From contig NZ_LMRF01000005.1 in NCBI RefSeq assembly GCF_001424755.1, positions 206,797 to 270,796 on the forward strand: DNA of 64,000 nucleotides, read 5' to 3'. Source of the stretch: Marmoricola sp. Leaf446 (GTDB lineage: Bacteria > Actinomycetota > Actinomycetes > Propionibacteriales > Nocardioidaceae). A program made the position numbers and the translations under genes. Below are positions 23,825 through 32,570 of the stretch, piece by piece. The notes under the pieces are model-generated. The model did not search any database and was not told the DNA's origin. It was given only the letters and a program-made list of their open reading frames with translations. Positions within the stretch are counted from its first letter, which is position 1; the number at the start of each line of letters is the position of its first letter.

Positions 23825-23854
23825 ACCCACCGCCCGCGGGGCACGGTGGGGGGC

Positions 23855-25015
23855 ATGGCTGACGAGGAGCTGGTGCCGTTCACGGTCGAGGTGCCGGAGG
23901 CGGAGGTGGAGGACCTGCGGGAGCGCGTACGCCGCACCCGCTGGCCCGCGCCCGCGCCGGGCGAGACCGTCGCCGGGCAGGAGTGGAGCCGCGGGGTGCC
24001 GGTCGGCTACCTGCGCGAGCTGGCGGCGTACTGGTCCGAGGAGTTCGACTGGCGCACCCACGAGGCGCAGCTCAACGCCCTCCCGCAGCTCACCACCACC
24101 ATCGACGGGGCGCGCGTCCACCTGGTGCACGAGCGGTCGCCCGAGCCGGACGCGCTGCCGCTGGTGATGACGCACGGCTGGCCGGGGTCGGTGCTAGAGT
24201 TCCTCGACGTGGTCGGGCCGCTGACCGACCCGGTCGCCCACGGCGGCGACGCGCGGGACGCCTTCCACGTGGTGGCGCCGTCGATCCCGGGCTACACCTG
24301 GTCGGGGCCGCTGACCGAGCCCGGCTGGGACCCCGCGCGGGTGGGGCGGGCGTTCGCGACGCTGATGGCGCGCCTGGGCTACGACCGGTACGCCGCGCAG
24401 GGCGGCGACTGGGGCTCCACGATCACCCGTGAGATCGGGATCGCCGACCCCGAGCACGTCGTCGGCGTGCACCTCAACATGCTGATCCAGCGCCCGCAGG
24501 ACCTCGACGCGCTCGAGGGCGAGGAGCGGGAGCGGGCCGCGGAGGTGCACCGCTACCTCTCCGACGGGTCGGGCTACCGCAAGATCCAGGCCACCCGGCC
24601 GCAGACGTTGGCCTACGCGCTGACCGACTCCCCGGTCGGGCAGCTGGCGTGGATCGTGGAGAAGTTCCGGGAGTGGACCGACCCGGGGACCGGCTCCGGG
24701 CTGCCCGAGGACGCCGTCGACCGCGACCGGGTGCTGGCCGACGTGTCGGCGTACTGGTTCACCCGGACCGCCGGCTCGTCGGCCCAGCTCTACCTCGAGG
24801 CGGCGGCGGCCAGGCGGGGCGTGGTGCGCTCGGAGGTCCCGACCGGCGTCGCGGTGTTCCCCCGCGACATCGCCCGGCCGATCCGCCGGCTGGCCGAGGA
24901 GCACGACCGGATCGTGCGGTGGACCGAGATGGACCGCGGCGGCCACTTCGCCGCGCTGGAGGAGCCCGACCTGCTGGTCGAGGACGTGCGGGCGATGTTC
25001 CGGGGGCTGCGGTAG
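23855..25015 (+). CDS. Epoxide hydrolase (EHN plus alpha/beta hydrolase)
   Basis: A 386-residue protein. Residues 1-110 are the N-terminal EHN domain (LRERVRRTRWPAPAP, FDWRTHEAQLNALPQ). The hydrolase core has HGWPGS for the oxyanion hole, GGDWGS with the nucleophilic Asp (about residue 190) and a late GGHFA with the catalytic His. ATG 23855 has a G-rich ribosome-binding site. The enzyme should open epoxides to diols through an alkyl-enzyme intermediate. The stop codon TAG runs directly into a copy of a dispersed 19-bp repeat (25015-25033). Confidence 0.92.
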   Translation: MADEELVPFTVEVPEAEVEDLRERVRRTRWPAPAPGETVAGQEWSRGVPVGYLRELAAYWSEEFDWRTHEAQLNALPQLTTTIDGARVHLVHERSPEPDALPLVMTHGWPGSVLEFLDVVGPLTDPVAHGGDARDAFHVVAPSIPGYTWSGPLTEPGWDPARVGRAFATLMARLGYDRYAAQGGDWGSTITREIGIADPEHVVGVHLNMLIQRPQDLDALEGEERERAAEVHRYLSDGSGYRKIQATRPQTLAYALTDSPVGQLAWIVEKFREWTDPGTGSGLPEDAVDRDRVLADVSAYWFTRTAGSSAQLYLEAAAARRGVVRSEVPTGVAVFPRDIARPIRRLAEEHDRIVRWTEMDRGGHFAALEEPDLLVEDVRAMFRGLR

Positions 25016-25484: not shown

Positions 25485-25534
25485 TTCAACAGCATGTTGA
25501 AGTATGTTCTGGGTAACCACTGATTACTTCAACA
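25485..25534 (+). promoter_or_regulatory. Palindromic operator/promoter region of the MAA operon
   Basis: TTCAACA-GCA-TGTTGAA (25485-25501) is a perfect 7-bp dyad. Its right half extends to TGTTGAAGTA (25495-25504), which pairs perfectly with TACTTCAACA (25525-25534). Three TTCAACA half-sites thus occur within 50 bp, 46-95 bp upstream of the first gene. The AT-rich patch stands out against the surrounding sequence and is the likely promoter. No regulator gene is adjacent. Confidence 0.7.
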
Positions 25535-25579: not shown

Positions 25580-26248
25580 ATGGCCGCCATCCTGTTCGGT
25601 TCGATCAGCAGTGTCGCCGACACCTCCGAGCTGCAGCGCGAGTCCTTCAACGAGGCGTTCGCCCAGCACGGTCTCGACTGGCGCTGGGAGCACGACGACT
25701 ACGTCGCGATGCTCGAGTCCAGCGGCGGGGCCGACCGCGTCGCGGCGTACGCGAAGGAGCGCGGCGAGGAGGTCGACGCCCAGGCCGTGCACGCCACCAA
25801 GTCCTCGATCTTCCAGGACAAGCTGATCAGCGAAGGCGTGGAGCCCCGCCCCGGCGTCGTGGAGACCATCGAGGCCGCGCACCGCGAGGGCCTCAAGGTC
25901 GGCCTGGTCACCACCACCAGCCCCGACAACATCGACGCCCTGGTCACCGCGCTGCGTCCCCACGTCGACCTGCGCGGCTTCGACGTCGTCGTCGACGTCA
26001 CCCAGGTCGAGCAGCCCAAGCCCGACCGCGACGCCTATGCCTTCGCCCTCGACCGGCTCGACGAGCAGGCCGGTGCCTGCGTCGCGATCGAGGACAACCT
26101 CGGCGGCGTCCAGGCGGCCACCGCCGCCGGCGTGACCGTCATCGCCTTCCCCAACACCAACACCGCGGGCCACGACTTCGCCGGCGCGCACTCCCGCGTG
26201 GACAAGCTCGACGCCGCCGCCCTCGTCGGCCTGGCACAGAGCGCCTGA
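25580..26248 (+). CDS. HAD-like protein lacking the catalytic aspartates, first gene of the MAA operon
   Basis: A 222-residue protein with the HAD subfamily I fold (CbbY/beta-phosphoglucomutase-like, with helical cap). Motif I, normally FDxDGxxxDS, reads [11 protein letters not shown]: Gly7 and Ile9 replace the nucleophile and the acid/base aspartates. The other motifs are intact: LVTTTS (110-114), Lys147 in QPKPD and IEDNLGG (170-176, Asp172). A classical phosphatase mechanism is therefore impossible, yet the rest is well preserved, arguing for a binding, regulatory or structural role rather than decay. GAGGAG precedes the ATG. It is 41 bp from mysA. Confidence 0.85.
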
Positions 26249-26289
26249 CCCACCCGGACCTCGATCCCAGACCCGAGAAGAGGAACCCC

Positions 26290-27501
26290 ATGTCCAGCGT
26301 GCACGCGACCCTCGAGGCCACCGACTCGGCCTTCCACGTCTCCGGCCGGGAGTCGATCGACTTCAGCCTGGTCTACAGCCGTGGCGTCTTCGACCTCGAC
26401 AACCCCGAGCTGGCCGACACCTACCGTGACTACGGCCGCTGCCTGGCCGTCGTCGACGAGCAGGTGAATGCGCTCCACGGCGAGCGGCTGACGGCGTACT
26501 TCGCCCATCACGGCATCGACCTCACCGTGTTCGCGATCAAGATCGGAGAGCAGCGCAAGACGCTCGCCACGGTCGAGAAGATCGTCGACGCCTTCGCCGA
26601 CTTCGGACTGCTGCGCAAGGAGCCGGTGCTGGTGATCGGCGGCGGGCTCACCACCGACGTCGCCGGGTTCGCCTGCGCGTCGTACCGCCGGAGCACCAAC
26701 TACATCCGCATCCCCACCACCCTGATCGGGCTCATCGACGCCAGCGTCTCGATCAAGGTCGCGGTCAACCACGGCAAGCACAAGAACCGGCTCGGCGCCT
26801 ACCACGCGTCGCAGAAGGTGCTGCTCGACTTCAGCCTGCTGGAGACCCTGCCCGAGGACCAGGTCCGCAACGGGATGGCCGAGCTCATCAAGATCGCGGT
26901 CGTGGCCAACGCCGACATCTTCGACCTGCTGGAGAAGTACGGCGAGGAGCTGCTGCGCACCCGCTTCGGCCACCTCGACGGCAACGACCAGCTGCGCGAG
27001 GTCGCCGACACGATCACCTACGAGGCGATCAGGACGATGCTCACCCTCGAGGTGCCCAACCTGCACGAGCTCGACCTTGACCGGGTGATCGCCTACGGCC
27101 ACACCTGGAGCCCGACGCTCGAGCTCACGCCCGAGGTGCCCTACTTCCACGGCCACGCCATCAACGTCGACATGGCGTTCTCGGCCTCGGTGGCCCACGA
27201 GCTGGGCTACGTCTCGGAGATCGAGCGCGACCGCATCCTCGGCGTGATGAGCAGCATCGGGCTCGCGCTCGACAGCCCGCACCTCACGCCCGAGCTGCTG
27301 CGCAAGGGCACCGAGTCGATCATGCAGACCCGCGACGGCCTGCTGCGCGCCGCGCTGCCGCAGCCGATCGGCACCTGCGTGTTCGCCAACGACCTCGATG
27401 CCGACCAGCTCGACGGCATGCTGACGCGTCACAAGGAGCTGGTGCGGGGCTACCCGCGCCAGGGCGAGGGCCAGGACATGTTCACCTCGCCGGCGGCATG
27501 A
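26290..27501 (+). CDS. mysA: Desmethyl-4-deoxygadusol synthase (sugar phosphate cyclase)
   Basis: A 403-residue dehydroquinate-synthase-fold cyclase. The NAD-binding and active-site stretch runs from [19 protein letters not shown] (116-134) to [20 protein letters not shown] (141-160). The metal ligands are Glu198 (GMAELIKIA), His271 (YGHTWSP) and His287 (HGHAINVD). The [10 protein letters not shown] and [12 protein letters not shown] stretches are typical of MAA-type cyclases rather than AroB. It should convert sedoheptulose 7-phosphate to desmethyl-4-deoxygadusol. The related 2-epi-5-epi-valiolone synthase activity is excluded mainly by context: the following O-methyltransferase and ligases are the MAA set. 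It overlaps mysB by 4 bp. Confidence 0.93.
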
Positions 27502-28337
27502 CCACGACCCGCACCACCCCACGACCGGTCACGCCGCTGGCCATCCTCGCGGCGAGCCTCGACGACGTCGTGGCCCGTCTCGACGAGGCCGGGGCCGGTC
27601 CCGACGGCGTCGCGCTGGATCCCGCCCTGGGCTCGGAGATCCGGCGCGCCGCCGCCCTGGCCGCGGGCCTCGACCCCTACACCGCCGCCCTGTCCACTCC
27701 CGAGTCGCCCGCCCTCCGCGCATTGTCGGAGCGCACCGCGGCCGAGGACTGGGCGGGCGACGGCTCCGGGCTCGAGCAGGAGATGCTGTCGGGCCACCTG
27801 GAGGGCCAGCTGCTCAAGATGCTGGTGCACGTCACCCGCGCCCGGCAGGTGCTGGAGATCGGGATGTTCACCGGCTACTCCGCGCTGGCCATGGCCGAGG
27901 CCGTCCAGGAGGTCGCGGGCGAGGAGGGCGTGGTCGTCGCGTGCGAGATCGACGAACGCGTCGCGGCGCTGGCGCAGGAGTGCTTCGAGGCCTCCCCGGC
28001 CGGCGACCGGATCGACGTCCACGTCGGGCCGGCAATGGACACGCTCCACGCCCTCGCCGACGCGGGCGCGCGCTTCGACCTGGTGTTCCTCGACGCCGAC
28101 AAGGCGGGGTACGCCGACTACCTCCGCGCGCTGCTCGACACCGGCCTGCTCGCCCGCCGCGGGCTGCTGGTCGTCGACAACACGCTGATGCAGGGCCAGC
28201 CCTGGACCGGCGAGGCGACGCCCAACGGCGAGGCCATCGCGGCGTTCAACCAGGTCCTCGCCGACGACCCCCGGGTGGAGCAGGTCGTGCTGCCGGTCCG
28301 CGACGGCGTCACCCTCGTGCGCCGCACCGCCGGATGA
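27498..28337 (+). CDS. mysB: O-methyltransferase making 4-deoxygadusol
   Basis: A 279-residue class I SAM-dependent methyltransferase of the catechol/caffeoyl-CoA type. The SAM loop is [19 protein letters not shown] (about 117-135), followed by [13 protein letters not shown] (motif II) and [19 protein letters not shown] with acidic metal ligands. The N-terminal 90 residues form the helical cap typical of MysB. It methylates desmethyl-4-deoxygadusol to 4-deoxygadusol. It is bracketed by 4-bp overlaps with mysA and mysC. The first 12 residues are threonine- and proline-rich and probably disordered. Confidence 0.92.
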
Positions 28338-29656
28338 CCCGCCTCGCCCACTCCGCCCGCACGCTCGGCGCGATGGGCCTGCTCGGTCTGGCGCTGCCGG
28401 TCAACGCCGCGCTGACCACGACCGCGCTGGTGCGCGGATGGGCTCGACCGGCGGCCTCCGCGGACCCCCGCCGGTCGAGCCCGTCGCGACCCCGCACCGT
28501 GATGGTGAGCGGCGGCAAGATGACCAAGGCGCTGGCGCTGTGCCGCGCCTTCCACGCCGCCGGTCACCGGGTCGTGCTGGTGGAGTCCGCGCGCTACCGG
28601 CTCACCGGGCACCGGTTCTCGCGCGCGGTCGACGCCTTCCACACCATCCCCGACGCCGGGTCACCCGACTACGCCGACGCCCTCGAGGCGATCGTCCGTG
28701 CCGAGGGCGTCGACGTCTACGTGCCCGTCTGCAGCCCCGCCTCGAGCATCGCCGACGCCCGGGCCAAGAAGCAGCTGGAGCAGGTCTGCGAGGTCGTGCA
28801 CCTCGACCCCGACCGGCTGGAGCTGGTCGACGACAAGTTCCGCTTCGCCCGGGCCGCGGCCGCGGCCGGGCTGGGGGTGCCGGACACGCACCTGGTCACC
28901 GACGCCCAGCAGGTCCTCGACCACGACTTCTCCGGCGCCACCCGGCCCTACATCCTCAAGTCCATCGCCTACGACCCCGTGCACCGGCTCGACCTGACCC
29001 GGCTGCCTCATCGCGACATGGAGGCCTTCGTGCGCTCGCTGCCCATCAGCGAGGCCAACCCGTGGATCCTCCAGGAGTTCGTCGAGGGCACGGAGTACTG
29101 CACCCACTCCACCGTCCGCGACGGCCGCCTCACCGTCTACTGCTGCTGCGAGTCCTCGGCCTTCCAGGTCAACTACGACCACGTCGAGCACCCCGGCATC
29201 CGCGCGTGGGTCGACACCTTCGTCGGCGAGGCGGGCCTGACCGGCCAGGTCTCGCTCGACTTCATCGTCGACGAGCACGACGAGGTGTTCGCGATCGAGT
29301 GCAACCCGCGCACCCACTCCGCCATCACGCTGCTCCACGACCACCCCGGCGTCGCCGCGGCCTACCTCGAGGACGACCCGGACGCCGAGGTCGTGGTGCC
29401 GACGGCGGCCGGCCGGCCGACGTACTGGACCTACCACGAGCTCTGGCGGCTGCTGGCCGAGCGCGGTCGCCGGGAGCGGCTGCGGGTGCTGCGCGAGGGC
29501 ACCGACGCGATCTTCGACTGGGACGACCCGCTGCCGTTCCTCGTGGAGCACCACGTGCAGGTGCCGTGGCTGCTGCTGCGCAGCCTGGTCGAGGGCCGGC
29601 CGTGGCTGCGCGTGGACTTCAACATCGGCAAGCTCGTGGAGGCCGGGGGTGACTGA
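28334..29656 (+). CDS. mysC: ATP-grasp ligase forming mycosporine-glycine
   Basis: A 440-residue ATP-grasp enzyme. There is a hydrophobic N-terminal segment (GAMGLLGLALPVNAALTTTALV, about 12-33), then a pre-ATP-grasp domain from TVMVSGGKMTKALALCRAF. ATP-grasp elements include YILKSIAYDP and ILQEFVEGTEYCTHS, and the magnesium ligands lie in FAIECNPRTHSAIT (about 325-338). MysC phosphorylates 4-deoxygadusol and couples glycine to give mycosporine-glycine. The extra hydrophobic N-terminus also occurs in cyanobacterial MysC and suggests membrane association. It shares a 4-bp overlap with mysB and an 8-bp overlap with mysD. Confidence 0.93.
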   Translation: MTRLAHSARTLGAMGLLGLALPVNAALTTTALVRGWARPAASADPRRSSPSRPRTVMVSGGKMTKALALCRAFHAAGHRVVLVESARYRLTGHRFSRAVDAFHTIPDAGSPDYADALEAIVRAEGVDVYVPVCSPASSIADARAKKQLEQVCEVVHLDPDRLELVDDKFRFARAAAAAGLGVPDTHLVTDAQQVLDHDFSGATRPYILKSIAYDPVHRLDLTRLPHRDMEAFVRSLPISEANPWILQEFVEGTEYCTHSTVRDGRLTVYCCCESSAFQVNYDHVEHPGIRAWVDTFVGEAGLTGQVSLDFIVDEHDEVFAIECNPRTHSAITLLHDHPGVAAAYLEDDPDAEVVVPTAAGRPTYWTYHELWRLLAERGRRERLRVLREGTDAIFDWDDPLPFLVEHHVQVPWLLLRSLVEGRPWLRVDFNIGKLVEAGGD

Positions 29657-30710
29657 GCGGACCGGACGCCTGCGCGTGCTCCACCTCGTCGGCTCCCCCA
29701 CGTCCCCGCAGATGGCCGAGCTCTCGCTGTTGTACGCCGCGGACTGCCTCGCCGCCACCCACGACCCCGAGCACCACGAGGTGCTCGTCGCCCACGTCTC
29801 GCCGGACGGCTCCTGGCGCTTCCCGGCCGACCTCGCGCCGGCCACCGTCGCCGCCGCCCCGGCGCTCGGCCTCGACGAGGCGCTGTCCCGGCTGCGCACG
29901 GAGGCCCCCGACGTCGCCGTGCCCCAGATGTTCTGCTTCGCCGGCATGACGACCTACCGTGCGCTGCTCGACCTGCTCGGCATCCCCTTCGTCGGCAACG
30001 CCCCCGACGTGATGGCCCTGACCGCCCACAAGGCCCGCGCCAAGGCCGTCGTCGCGGCCGCCGGCGTGCGGGTGCCGGCGGGCGAGGTGCTCGCGCCCGC
30101 GGAGCGGCCCACGGTCGGCCTCCCGGCGGTCGTGAAGCCGGTCGACGCCGACAACTCCTCGGGCGTCACGCTGGTGCGCGAGGCGTCGGAGTGGGACGTC
30201 GCGCTCGCGGCCGCCCGCGAGCACGGGCGCGACGTGCTGCTCGAGGAGTACGTCGAGCTCGGCCGCGAGGTCCGCTGCGGCGTCCTCGAGGTCGACGGCG
30301 AGCTGGTCGGCCTGCCCCTGGAGGAGTACGCCGTGGACCGCGACACCAAGCCGGTCCGCGACGCCTCCGACAAGCTGCGCCGCGACCCGACCGAGGACGG
30401 CGAGGGCAGCCTCGCCCTGGTGGCCAAGACCGAGGAGCACGCCTGGATCGTGGACCCGGCCGACCCGCTCACCGCGCGCGTCCACCGGGCGGCGTACGCC
30501 GCTCACCGTGCCCTGGGCTGTCGCGACTACAGCCTGTTCGACTTCCGGGTCGACGCCCACGGGGAGCCGTGGTTCCTCGAGGCCGGGCTCTACTGCTCCT
30601 ACGCCACCACCAGCGTCGTCGCCGTGATGGCCGCCGCCGCCGGTACCCCCCTGCCCGACCTGTTCCGCGCCGGCCTCGACCAGGCCCTGGCGCGGGGCGC
30701 CCACCGATGA
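29649..30710 (+). CDS. mysD: D-Ala-D-Ala-ligase-like enzyme forming disubstituted MAAs
   Basis: A 353-residue ATP-grasp ligase. The start is a GTG inside the end of mysC. FCFAGMTTYRALLDLLGIPFVGN is the N-terminal substrate region, LPAVVKPVDADNSSGVTLV and VLLEEYVELGREVRCGVL are ATP-binding elements, and WFLEAGLYCSYATTSVV is the magnesium loop. MysD-type enzymes add serine, threonine or alanine to mycosporine-glycine, giving shinorine, porphyra-334 or mycosporine-glycine-alanine. The alternative is an NRPS-like MysE, which is absent. The identity of the second amino acid cannot be read from the sequence. It ends 10 bp before the dioxygenase. Confidence 0.92.
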   Translation: MTERTGRLRVLHLVGSPTSPQMAELSLLYAADCLAATHDPEHHEVLVAHVSPDGSWRFPADLAPATVAAAPALGLDEALSRLRTEAPDVAVPQMFCFAGMTTYRALLDLLGIPFVGNAPDVMALTAHKARAKAVVAAAGVRVPAGEVLAPAERPTVGLPAVVKPVDADNSSGVTLVREASEWDVALAAAREHGRDVLLEEYVELGREVRCGVLEVDGELVGLPLEEYAVDRDTKPVRDASDKLRRDPTEDGEGSLALVAKTEEHAWIVDPADPLTARVHRAAYAAHRALGCRDYSLFDFRVDAHGEPWFLEAGLYCSYATTSVVAVMAAAAGTPLPDLFRAGLDQALARGAHR

Positions 30711-30720
30711 GGAGCACCCC

Positions 30721-31527
30721 ATGAGGACCACCGCCACCGAGCCCGTCGGCGTCGAGGTCACCGACCTCGACCTGCGCGAGGTCAGCGACGCCGAGGTCGA
30801 GCAGCTCCGGCTGCTGCTGGCCGAGCGCGGCGTCGCCGTCTTCCCCGGCCAGGACGTCGACGACGAGTCGTTCGTGGCGTTCCTGCGCCGCTTCGGCGAC
30901 CTCGCCTTCACGGTCGGCGAGACCCCGGTGGAGGGCTGCCCGGACCTCAACCTGATCAGCAACGTCGGGCGCACCACCCCGCCGCGCAGCCAGTTCCACG
31001 TCGACTCCAGCTACCTGCGCGTGCCGCCGGCGTACACCGCCCTGCGCACCGTCACCATCCCCGACGAGGGCGGCGAGACCCTGTTCACCAACCAGTACGT
31101 CGCCCACGACACGCTGCCCGCGGACCTGCGCGAGCAGCTCGAGGGCCGACGCATCACCCACGTCGTGACCGGGCTCGACCTCGACGACGACGAGGAGACC
31201 CAGGCCCAGCACCCGGTGTTCCGGCCGCACCCGGTGACCGGGCGTCCCGCGCTCTACCTCTCCACCGCCGCCCGCTGCGCCTCGATCAGCGGCATGGACG
31301 AGGCGGAGACGCAGGCGGTGGTGGCGCGGCTGCTCGAGCACTCCACCCGCCCGGAGAACACGTTGCGCCACGCCTGGTCGCCCGGCGACGTGGTGATGTG
31401 GGACAACGCCGTGGTGATGCACAAGGCCGACCACTCCGGCGTCGTGGGCGACCGCGTGATGCACCGCGGCATGGTCGCGGGGCACGGGTCGGAGGCCGGC
31501 TCCGGCGAGGACCACCCGGGCTGGTGA
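30721..31527 (+). CDS. mysH: Fe(II)/2-oxoglutarate dioxygenase of the TauD family, MysH-like
   Basis: A 268-residue TauD-fold enzyme. The iron ligands are His93 and Asp95 (QFHVDSSY) and His234 (VVMHKAD), and Arg245 or Arg249 is positioned for 2-oxoglutarate. GAGGAG precedes the ATG, 10 bp after mysD. In cyanobacteria MysH, an enzyme of this class at the end of MAA clusters, trims the glycine-derived group of disubstituted MAAs to give palythines. Position and family make the same role likely here; sequence-level orthology to MysH was not tested. It is the last gene of the operon, and 167 bp follow before the sigma factor. Confidence 0.8.
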   Translation: MRTTATEPVGVEVTDLDLREVSDAEVEQLRLLLAERGVAVFPGQDVDDESFVAFLRRFGDLAFTVGETPVEGCPDLNLISNVGRTTPPRSQFHVDSSYLRVPPAYTALRTVTIPDEGGETLFTNQYVAHDTLPADLREQLEGRRITHVVTGLDLDDDEETQAQHPVFRPHPVTGRPALYLSTAARCASISGMDEAETQAVVARLLEHSTRPENTLRHAWSPGDVVMWDNAVVMHKADHSGVVGDRVMHRGMVAGHGSEAGSGEDHPGW

Positions 31528-31694: not shown

Positions 31695-32570
31695 ATGACC
31701 TCGCTCCTCCCCCAGCCCTCCACCTCGCCGGACGTCGCGGCAATCGCGACCACGACGCCGGACGACGTCCCCGTCGGTGCCGTCGCGCCCCCGCGCAACC
31801 GCCGCTCGCTGCGCACCTCCGAGCTCTTCGCCGAGCTCGCGGGCACCGACGACGAGGCCGAGCGCGCCCGGATCCTCGAGGCGGTCCTCGTCCTCAACAT
31901 CCCGGTCGCCGAGTCCATCGCGTCGCGCTACCGCGGCCGCGGCGTCGGCGACGACGACCTCGAGGGCGTGGCCCGGCTCGCGCTCGTCAAGGCCGTACGC
32001 CGCTACGACACCGGCTCGGGCCACGACTTCCTCTCCTTCGCGGTGCCGACCATCCGCGGCGAGATCAAGCGCTACTTCCGCGACTCCGGCTGGATGATCC
32101 GGCCGCCGCGCCGGATCCAGGAGGTCCAGGCCGGCATCGCCGCGGTCGAGAGCGAGCTGGGCGCCCGGCTCGGCACCTCGCCCCGGCCCAGCGAGCTGGC
32201 TGCGGCCCTCGAGGTCGACCTGAGCGACGTCGAGGAGGCGCTGGCCGCCCGCGGCTGCTTCGTCCCGGCGTCGCTGGACCGACCCGTCGGCGAGGCCGGC
32301 GAGATGCCGCTGGCCGACCTGCTGGGCGACGTCGACCCCGCGCAGGGCGCCGCCGAGGCGCGCGCGGTGCTGGGACCGCTGGTGAGCCGGCTCTCCGAGC
32401 GCGACCGGCGCGTCATCGAGCTGCGCTTCTTCTCCGGGCTCACCCAGCGCGAGATCGCCGAGGACATCGGGGTGACGCAGATGCAGGTCTCCCGCCTGCT
32501 GAGCCGGATCCTGCGCGACCTGCGCCGTGGTCTGGAGAGCGTCCCCGAGACCCTGGTCGAGGCCCGCTAG
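31695..32570 (+). CDS. RNA polymerase sigma factor, SigB/SigF/SigG family
   Basis: A 291-residue group 3 sigma factor. The N-terminal 45 residues are a variable, proline- and threonine-rich extension. Region 2 includes LNIPVAESIASRYRGRGV, DDLEGVARLALVKAVRRYD and FLSFAVPTIRGEIKRYFRD, and SGWMIRPPRRIQE is the family signature. Region 4 is LSERDRRVIELRFFSGLTQR with the HTH in EIAEDIGVTQMQVSRLLSRI. Such factors serve general stress, osmotic or light responses. No anti-sigma factor gene is adjacent. It lies directly after the MAA operon and before a GAF-ANTAR regulator, on the same strand. Confidence 0.93.
   Translation: MTSLLPQPSTSPDVAAIATTTPDDVPVGAVAPPRNRRSLRTSELFAELAGTDDEAERARILEAVLVLNIPVAESIASRYRGRGVGDDDLEGVARLALVKAVRRYDTGSGHDFLSFAVPTIRGEIKRYFRDSGWMIRPPRRIQEVQAGIAAVESELGARLGTSPRPSELAAALEVDLSDVEEALAARGCFVPASLDRPVGEAGEMPLADLLGDVDPAQGAAEARAVLGPLVSRLSERDRRVIELRFFSGLTQREIAEDIGVTQMQVSRLLSRILRDLRRGLESVPETLVEAR

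What the first reader, a model, noticed from the sequence alone, without database searches (positions are those of the whole stretch)
25580..31527. Complete MAA operon with a palythine-type dioxygenase and a HAD pseudoenzyme
mysA, B, C and D are in pathway order with 4-8 bp overlaps, followed by a TauD-family dioxygenase at the MysH position and preceded by a HAD-fold gene. Known actinobacterial MAA clusters are best described for the four core genes. The six-gene form predicts palythine-type products and an extra, non-catalytic partner.
Basis: partly seen in the sequence, partly recalled or inferred. Interest (0 to 1): 0.8.

Follow-up and report, generated by a model that had tools for sequence, protein, structure and literature searches.

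The report
Sunscreen operon with conserved dead phosphatase
An actinobacterium carries a complete gene set for UV-absorbing sunscreen molecules, of a layout already reported, and its first gene encodes a phosphatase look-alike whose catalytic residues are gone in all 76 sunscreen-cluster copies compared, so it probably does something other than the usual catalysis.

Summary
Window 25580-31527 holds six co-directional genes: HAD, mysA, mysB, mysC, mysD and a TauD/TfdA dioxygenase. The layout is not new: a 2025 preprint (PMC11888242) reports HAD and TauD/TfdA as conserved in MAA clusters, Actinomycetota above all. It cites an unpublished result that such an operon from Rhodococcus fascians made shinorine, palythine and palythine-serine. 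The dioxygenase is not MysH (PhyH family); it belongs to the TauD family, like cyanobacterial MysI. MysA matches the solved MAA-type cyclase far better than a valiolone-type cyclase.

What my searches add concerns the HAD. It has the CbbY (xylulose-bisphosphate phosphatase) fold. The nucleophile and acid/base Asp are replaced by Gly and Ile/Leu in 76 of 76 distinct cluster HADs, within a GS[I/L][S/G] loop; nine other motif and cap residues are invariant. The gene is kept in 8 clusters whose genomes show no TauD relative (E<=1e-30) and in 4 without mysB. A non-MAA relative on a Roseobacter plasmid shares the dead motif. I read it as a conserved ligand-binding pseudoenzyme of unknown partner, not needed for mycosporine-glycine in published heterologous work.

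The parts
25485..25501 (.). perfect palindrome TTCAACA-GCA-TGTTGAA upstream of the operon, candidate operator
   Evidence: also in L071 and, as 9-3-9, in L072; function inferred only
25580..26248 (+). HAD-fold pseudoenzyme, CbbY-like, motif I LFGSISS instead of LFDxDGT
26290..27501 (+). mysA, desmethyl-4-deoxygadusol synthase type sugar phosphate cyclase
27498..28337 (+). mysB, O-methyltransferase
   Evidence: PF01596, 158.4 bits
28334..29656 (+). mysC, ATP-grasp ligase
   Evidence: NF005315 434.4 bits, over cut-off; 55.8% identity to the corresponding protein of a Nostoc mys cluster
29649..30710 (+). mysD, D-Ala-D-Ala ligase-like (GTG start)
   Evidence: 52% identity to the ligase of the Nostoc cluster, its only plasmid match at E<=1e-25
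30721..31527 (+). TauD/TfdA Fe(II)/2-oxoglutarate dioxygenase, putative palythine-forming enzyme
   Evidence: HxD (H93, D95), H234 and R245 conserved at >=98% in 50 rows

Best explanation
This is an actinobacterial mycosporine-like amino acid operon of the known HAD-mysABCD-TauD layout. MysA and MysB make 4-deoxygadusol from sedoheptulose 7-phosphate, MysC adds glycine, MysD adds a second amino acid (established for the families, inferred here). The TauD-family dioxygenase then most likely oxidises and removes part of an amino-acid side chain to give palythine-type products (inferred, about 0.75). The HAD is not a normal HAD phosphatase (about 0.95): both motif I Asp residues are gone. My preferred mechanism (about 0.4) is that it still binds a phosphorylated sugar or related anion in the CbbY-like pocket and acts as a non-catalytic accessory of the pathway, for example as a substrate-holding or sensing protein for the early enzymes. 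It is not essential for basic mycosporine-glycine synthesis. The gene order and the dead motif are shown; the chemistry and the HAD role are inferred.
For: Families and scores. TauD metal and 2OG residues intact. HAD fold: AlphaFold mean pLDDT 94.9, closest to CbbY (VIA-align Z 29.2, rmsd 2.2, 221 aligned to 4uar; best entry after the three bacterial CbbY entries 1te2 at 23.9). Dead motif: G7 and S8 in 76 of 76 distinct cluster HADs, I or L at 9 in 76 of 76, S10 in 71 and G10 in 5; R53, H71, K74, R90, T111, T113, K147, E171, D172 in 76 of 76. 13 live CbbY relatives all have D at both motif I positions. The HAD is about as conserved as its enzymatic neighbours (median identity to window 59.0%, n=51; MysB 59.6, n=46; MysC 58.6, n=49; MysD 57.9, n=49; TauD 61.3, n=45; MysA 67.3, n=50). 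HAD is kept in 8 clusters without TauD, and none of those 8 genomes has a TauD relative at E<=1e-30. It lies beside mysA in 75 of 76 (plus the window). Reported support for palythines.
Against: R. fascians MysA, MysB and MysC without HAD gave mycosporine-glycine in Streptomyces albidoflavus (passages of PMC11284840), so no strict need of the HAD for the core. Three mysABCD clusters have neither HAD nor TauD (L174, L177, L182), and the Nostoc cluster shows no HAD. One locus (L187) keeps HAD, mysC, mysD and TauD with no mysA or mysB in 18 kb, which argues against MysA as the only partner. Two of 12 dN/dS pairs are high (0.545 and 0.644), though synonymous sites may be held back by GC content there (my inference). 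TauD never occurs without HAD in an uncut cluster, which a TauD-partner role would also explain. No interaction, ligand or product was measured.
Confidence: 0.7

Rival explanations
1. The HAD is a dedicated partner of the TauD dioxygenase in the palythine-forming step.
For: TauD never occurs without HAD in an uncut cluster: 62 have both in full length (window included) and one more has TauD running off the contig (L025); 0 have TauD without HAD; L183, with TauD and no HAD in view, is cut. Both are absent together in L174, L177, L182.
Against: 8 clusters keep HAD with no TauD relative in the genome at E<=1e-30, and 3 keep HAD with a split or shortened TauD (L086, L171, L173). HAD stays beside mysA in 75 of 76 while TauD moves about.
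Confidence: 0.15
2. The HAD is a re-tooled catalyst: the GS[I/L]S loop with retained Lys, Glu and Asp forms a new active site for a non-phosphatase step.
For: The replaced loop is itself almost invariant and T111, K147, E171, D172 are 76 of 76; S16, Q19 and N173 are fixed or nearly so in the 52 compared and differ from the live relatives.
Against: No missing step is known in the pathway to mycosporine-glycine or shinorine (recalled); R. fascians MysABC suffice for the former.
Confidence: 0.25
3. The HAD is a decaying remnant that hitch-hikes in the operon.
For: Catalytic residues lost; three mysABCD clusters do without it; 2 of 12 pairs have dN/dS above 0.5.
Against: 76 of 76 distinct copies share the same loop and pocket residues; 10 of 12 gene pairs have dN/dS 0.05 to 0.28; about as conserved as the enzymes beside it.
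Confidence: 0.03
4. The cluster makes a valiolone-type cyclitol rather than an MAA.
For: MysA is a sugar phosphate cyclase related to valiolone synthases (269.6 bits to 4p53).
Against: 585.8 bits to 5tpr; mysB, mysC, mysD present, with mysC and mysD 56% and 52% identical to those of a Nostoc mys cluster.
Confidence: 0.02

Closest known systems
HAD-mysABCD-TauD clusters (GATOR-GC preprint, PMC11888242; outline and passages read)
   Same: Same gene content; HAD and TauD/TfdA named there as conserved partners in Actinomycetota (also found in Pseudomonadota and Bacillota); R. fascians example cited with palythine products.
   Different: The passages I read do not say that the HAD lacks its catalytic Asp residues, nor place it in the CbbY group.
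MysI of Nostoc sp. UHCC 0926 (PMC10510106; passages read)
   Same: TauD/TfdA family dioxygenase of an MAA pathway, proposed to give palythines.
   Different: Sits in a mysF-mysI-mysE cluster in cyanobacteria; orthology to the window enzyme not tested.
MysH palythine-forming dioxygenase
   Same: Same place in the pathway and same cofactor chemistry.
   Different: PhyH family (PMC10510106 passages; a PhyH gene also lies in the Nostoc HK-01 mys cluster), not TauD.
CbbY xylulose-1,5-bisphosphate phosphatase (4uar, 4uat)
   Same: Fold and many conserved residues.
   Different: Nucleophile and acid/base Asp replaced by Gly and Ile/Leu; different operon.

Membership tests
actinobacterial HAD-mysABCD-TauD MAA cluster | six genes co-directional and adjacent | tested here: met
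   33 of 51 related clusters have the identical order
actinobacterial HAD-mysABCD-TauD MAA cluster | makes MAAs, palythine type | not testable with these tools
   needs expression; unpublished R. fascians result cited in PMC11888242
desmethyl-4-deoxygadusol synthase (MysA) | closer to the solved MAA cyclase 5tpr than to the valiolone-type 4p53 | tested here: met
   585.8 against 269.6 bits. That 5tpr is the Anabaena MAA enzyme and 4p53 ValA is recalled, not from a call.
desmethyl-4-deoxygadusol synthase (MysA) | falls in the MysA clade of a tree with labelled valiolone synthases | not tested
MysH | PhyH family dioxygenase | tested here: not met
   the only Pfam match at E<=0.001 is PF02668 TauD
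MysI | TauD/TfdA family | tested here: met
MysI | orthologous to Nostoc MysI | not tested
   MysI sequences were not retrieved
Fe(II)/2OG dioxygenase | HxD...H metal triad and Arg for 2-oxoglutarate | tested here: met
   H93, D95, H234, R245 at >=98% of 50 rows; roles of the residues recalled
CbbY / HAD phosphatase | HAD fold with cap domain | tested here: met
CbbY / HAD phosphatase | motif I DxD (nucleophile and acid/base) | tested here: not met
   G7 and I/L9 in 76 of 76
CbbY / HAD phosphatase | motifs II (T), III (K) and IV (ED) | tested here: met
   T111, K147, E171, D172 in 76 of 76; motif definitions recalled
pseudoenzyme | no catalysis while ligand pocket is kept | not testable with these tools
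   sequence only; no assay

The most novel reading that the evidence does not exclude
A CbbY-type phosphatase lost its catalytic residues once, in a lineage that reaches beyond MAA clusters, and became a ligand-binding protein. It was then recruited as a non-catalytic component of actinobacterial sunscreen synthesis, where it holds or senses a sugar phosphate such as sedoheptulose 7-phosphate. Its loop GS[I/L][S/G] is the new functional site.
Probability: 0.3. Interest if true: 0.7.

Novelty: new member of a known kind. Interest (0 to 1): 0.47.

Why it matters
The 2025 preprint calls the role of the HAD in actinobacterial MAA clusters unvalidated. The sequence evidence here says that it cannot be a normal HAD phosphatase and that a fixed replacement loop is under selection. 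That turns an open question into direct tests of ligand binding and of a deletion. It also warns annotators: the Roseobacter relative with the same dead motif is annotated as a HAD-IA family hydrolase.

Tried and rejected
Rejected: valiolone-type product; MysH homology; decay of the HAD. 'HAD serves only the dioxygenase' was made unlikely by 8 clusters without TauD.

Led nowhere or was limited: Rfam at gathering threshold and tRNA search on the window gave nothing. A small search of 21 genomes added nothing. A three-row test alignment was not used. No paper that names the CbbY pocket residues was found; PMC10212915 passages mention catalytic and signature residues without listing them, so pocket roles rest on general HAD knowledge. 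MysC has no solved relative at E<=0.001. The spread of the dead motif outside Actinomycetota could not be followed beyond plasmids. Of 18 plasmid records I fetched 12 (the Roseobacter and 11 others); all 11 others keep a DxD motif. The genome-wide TauD search at E<=1e-30 did not report the shortened copies in G938 and G940 that a direct comparison shows, so damaged copies elsewhere could be missed; full-length ones score far better.

Rows dropped before counts: L090, L092, L185, L188 (same HAD as L018, L022, L030, L034), L035, L036, L096 (no MAA cluster found), L099, L100 (live paralogues). L183 and L194 (contig ends, no HAD in view) are left out of the HAD and TauD tally. L026 and L028 are cut: counted for the HAD motif, not for the TauD tally. 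L025 has TauD running off the contig and is told apart.

Papers: PMC11888242 outline and passages; PMC10510106, PMC10212915 and PMC11284840 passages; other papers only as search listings. I saw no statement in print that the HAD is inactive; this rests on searches of the held library only. One search found two papers with both 'mycosporine' and 'haloacid dehalogenase': the preprint and an algal transcriptome study seen as a listing.
Full report
Observation. Translation and family scans give HAD_2, DHQ synthase, O-methyltransferase, ATP-grasp, D-Ala-D-Ala-ligase-like and TauD. The overlaps of 4, 4 and 8 bases are real; the first and last gene are set off by 41 and 10 bases.

Core pathway. MysA scores 585.8 bits against PDB 5tpr and 269.6 against 4p53; that these are the MAA and the valiolone enzyme is recalled. 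MysC and MysD are 55.8% and 52% identical to proteins of a Nostoc HK-01 plasmid cluster that runs 3-dehydroquinate synthase-like, O-methyltransferase, MysC-like, a PhyH dioxygenase and a D-Ala-D-Ala ligase-like gene; the HAD search of plasmids did not hit that record. So the core is an MAA pathway by sequence. I did not build a tree of MysA with labelled valiolone synthases.

Dioxygenase. It is TauD family with the metal and 2-oxoglutarate residues kept in at least 98% of 50 rows. Its top-ranked plasmid homologue is only 35.6% identical. A TauD/TfdA enzyme called MysI is proposed to make palythines in Nostoc (PMC10510106, passages). The GATOR-GC preprint cites an unpublished expression of the R. 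fascians operon giving shinorine, palythine and palythine-serine. Palythine-type output is therefore a fair prediction, not shown here.

Prior art. PMC11888242 (outline and passages) reports HAD and TauD/TfdA as conserved in MAA clusters, found in Actinomycetota, Pseudomonadota and Bacillota and not in Cyanobacteriota, and says that the HAD role is unvalidated. The six-gene form is thus known. In the held library only two papers contain both 'mycosporine' and 'haloacid dehalogenase'; I saw no statement that the HAD is inactive, within the searches named.

The HAD. Among solved structures it is closest to CbbY by sequence and by predicted structure: AlphaFold mean pLDDT 94.9; Z 29.0 to 29.2 to three bacterial CbbY entries, next 23.9. 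Motif I, which carries nucleophile and acid/base Asp in HAD phosphatases (general knowledge), reads GSIS in the window. Across 76 distinct cluster HADs, position 7 is Gly in 76, position 8 Ser in 76, position 9 Ile or Leu in 76, position 10 Ser in 71 and Gly in 5. R53, H71, K74, R90, T111, T113, K147, E171 and D172 are fixed. Thirteen live relatives all keep Asp at both positions; at least five of the eleven plasmid ones lie beside rubisco, cbbX or phosphoribulokinase genes. The dead-motif proteins form one group of 53 rows with support 100/99, of which the 52 MAA rows form one with 99/98 (the 24 further Pseudonocardia-family HADs were not in this tree). The odd one out is a Roseobacter litoralis plasmid gene beside trkA, trkH and an L,D-transpeptidase, with no MAA gene annotated in the 16.6 kb read and none found there with MysA, MysB and TauD.

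How tightly it goes with MAA clusters. In a family sample, 18 of 197 genomes have a HAD match at E<=1e-25, all in MAA clusters. In a class sample, 11 of 394 genomes do (12 matches): 10 in MAA clusters and 2 live paralogues elsewhere. MysC searched in the same sample hits exactly the same 10 genomes. In a phylum sample, 7 of 396 genomes have MysA at E<=1e-65 (8 matches), and each of the 7 has a cluster with HAD; the eighth match is a further cyclase of one of them without the other genes near it. In the family of a Pseudonocardia genome, 36 of 390 genomes have MysC at E<=1e-60. Of these 36 regions, 26 show the dead HAD, 3 are mysABCD clusters without HAD and TauD, 5 are divergent C-A-B sets without HAD, and 2 are cut by contig ends.

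HAD against TauD. Of the 76 distinct HAD clusters, 62 have a full-length TauD (window included), 1 has TauD running off the contig (L025), 8 have none, 3 have a split or shortened copy (L086, L171, L173) and 2 are cut before that point (L026, L028). Three mysABCD clusters have neither gene; no uncut cluster has TauD without HAD, and L183, which shows TauD and no HAD, is a cut contig. The 8 genomes without TauD have no TauD relative at E<=1e-30, nor any remnant in the fetched regions. So the HAD outlives the dioxygenase. It also stays where mysB is missing (L016, L024, L027, L093) and, in L187, where neither mysA nor mysB is found in 18 kb. It lies next to mysA, among the six genes sought, in 75 of 76 (plus the window).

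Selection. dN/dS is 0.05 to 0.28 in 10 of 12 pairs and 0.545 and 0.644 in the other two, both of them window pairs, where GC content may hold back synonymous change (the reason is my inference). Median identity to the window protein, 59.0% over 51, is close to that of MysB, MysC and MysD. The protein looks functional.

Mechanism. Dead as a phosphatase, intact as a pocket, tied to the pathway but not clearly to one enzyme: I favour a ligand-binding accessory, perhaps for a sugar phosphate. Against a strict need stands the production of mycosporine-glycine by R. fascians MysABC alone (PMC11284840, passages) and the three HAD-less clusters. A new catalytic site built from the fixed loop is the main rival.

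Verdict. A sound, already described kind of operon, with a conserved pseudoenzyme that deserves a test.

Noticed in passing
window 25485-25532: Palindrome TTCAACA-GCA-TGTTGAA before the operon, also in L071 and as 9-3-9 in L072; longer 10-3-10 palindromes about 150 bases upstream of HAD in L017 and L022. A second pair TTGAAGTA/TACTTCAA was seen by eye only. Possible operator; regulator not sought.
   Followed up: partly
L112 7989-8660: Roseobacter litoralis plasmid HAD with the same dead motif (IIFGSIGT), not in an MAA cluster, beside trkA and trkH.
   Followed up: partly
L016, L024, L027, L093: Four Mycobacterium-type clusters lack mysB; their 4 genomes hold at most weak homologues (2 of 4 genomes at E<=1e-20, 38-40% identity). 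Either another methyltransferase acts or desmethyl products are made.
   Followed up: partly
L097 9891-11006, L098 7559-8722: Divergent MysA (37-39% identity) with SPRTCCDG in place of the usual K and N segment, in otherwise complete clusters with HAD, B, C, D and TauD.
   Followed up: partly
L187 6370-10283: HAD, mysC, mysD and TauD together with no mysA or mysB in an 18 kb stretch of a 6.2 Mb contig. The rest of that genome was not searched for them.
   Followed up: partly
L189-L193: Five genomes of the Pseudonocardia family carry a divergent mysC-mysA-mysB set (MysC 46-47%, MysA 37-39% identity to the window) without mysD, HAD or TauD nearby.
   Followed up: partly
L086 6610-7340; L171 9637-10158; L173 9656-10183: Damaged dioxygenase genes: split in two in G422, of the window's own genus, and shortened in two Pseudonocardia-family genomes.
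   Followed up: partly
L034 and L160: mysA appears in two overlapping frames in each: a frameshift, real or from sequencing.
   Followed up: no
window 31695-32570 and 23846-25015: Operon is followed by a sigma-70 family (regions 2, 3, 4) sigma factor gene and preceded by a gene with an epoxide hydrolase N-terminal domain.
   Followed up: no
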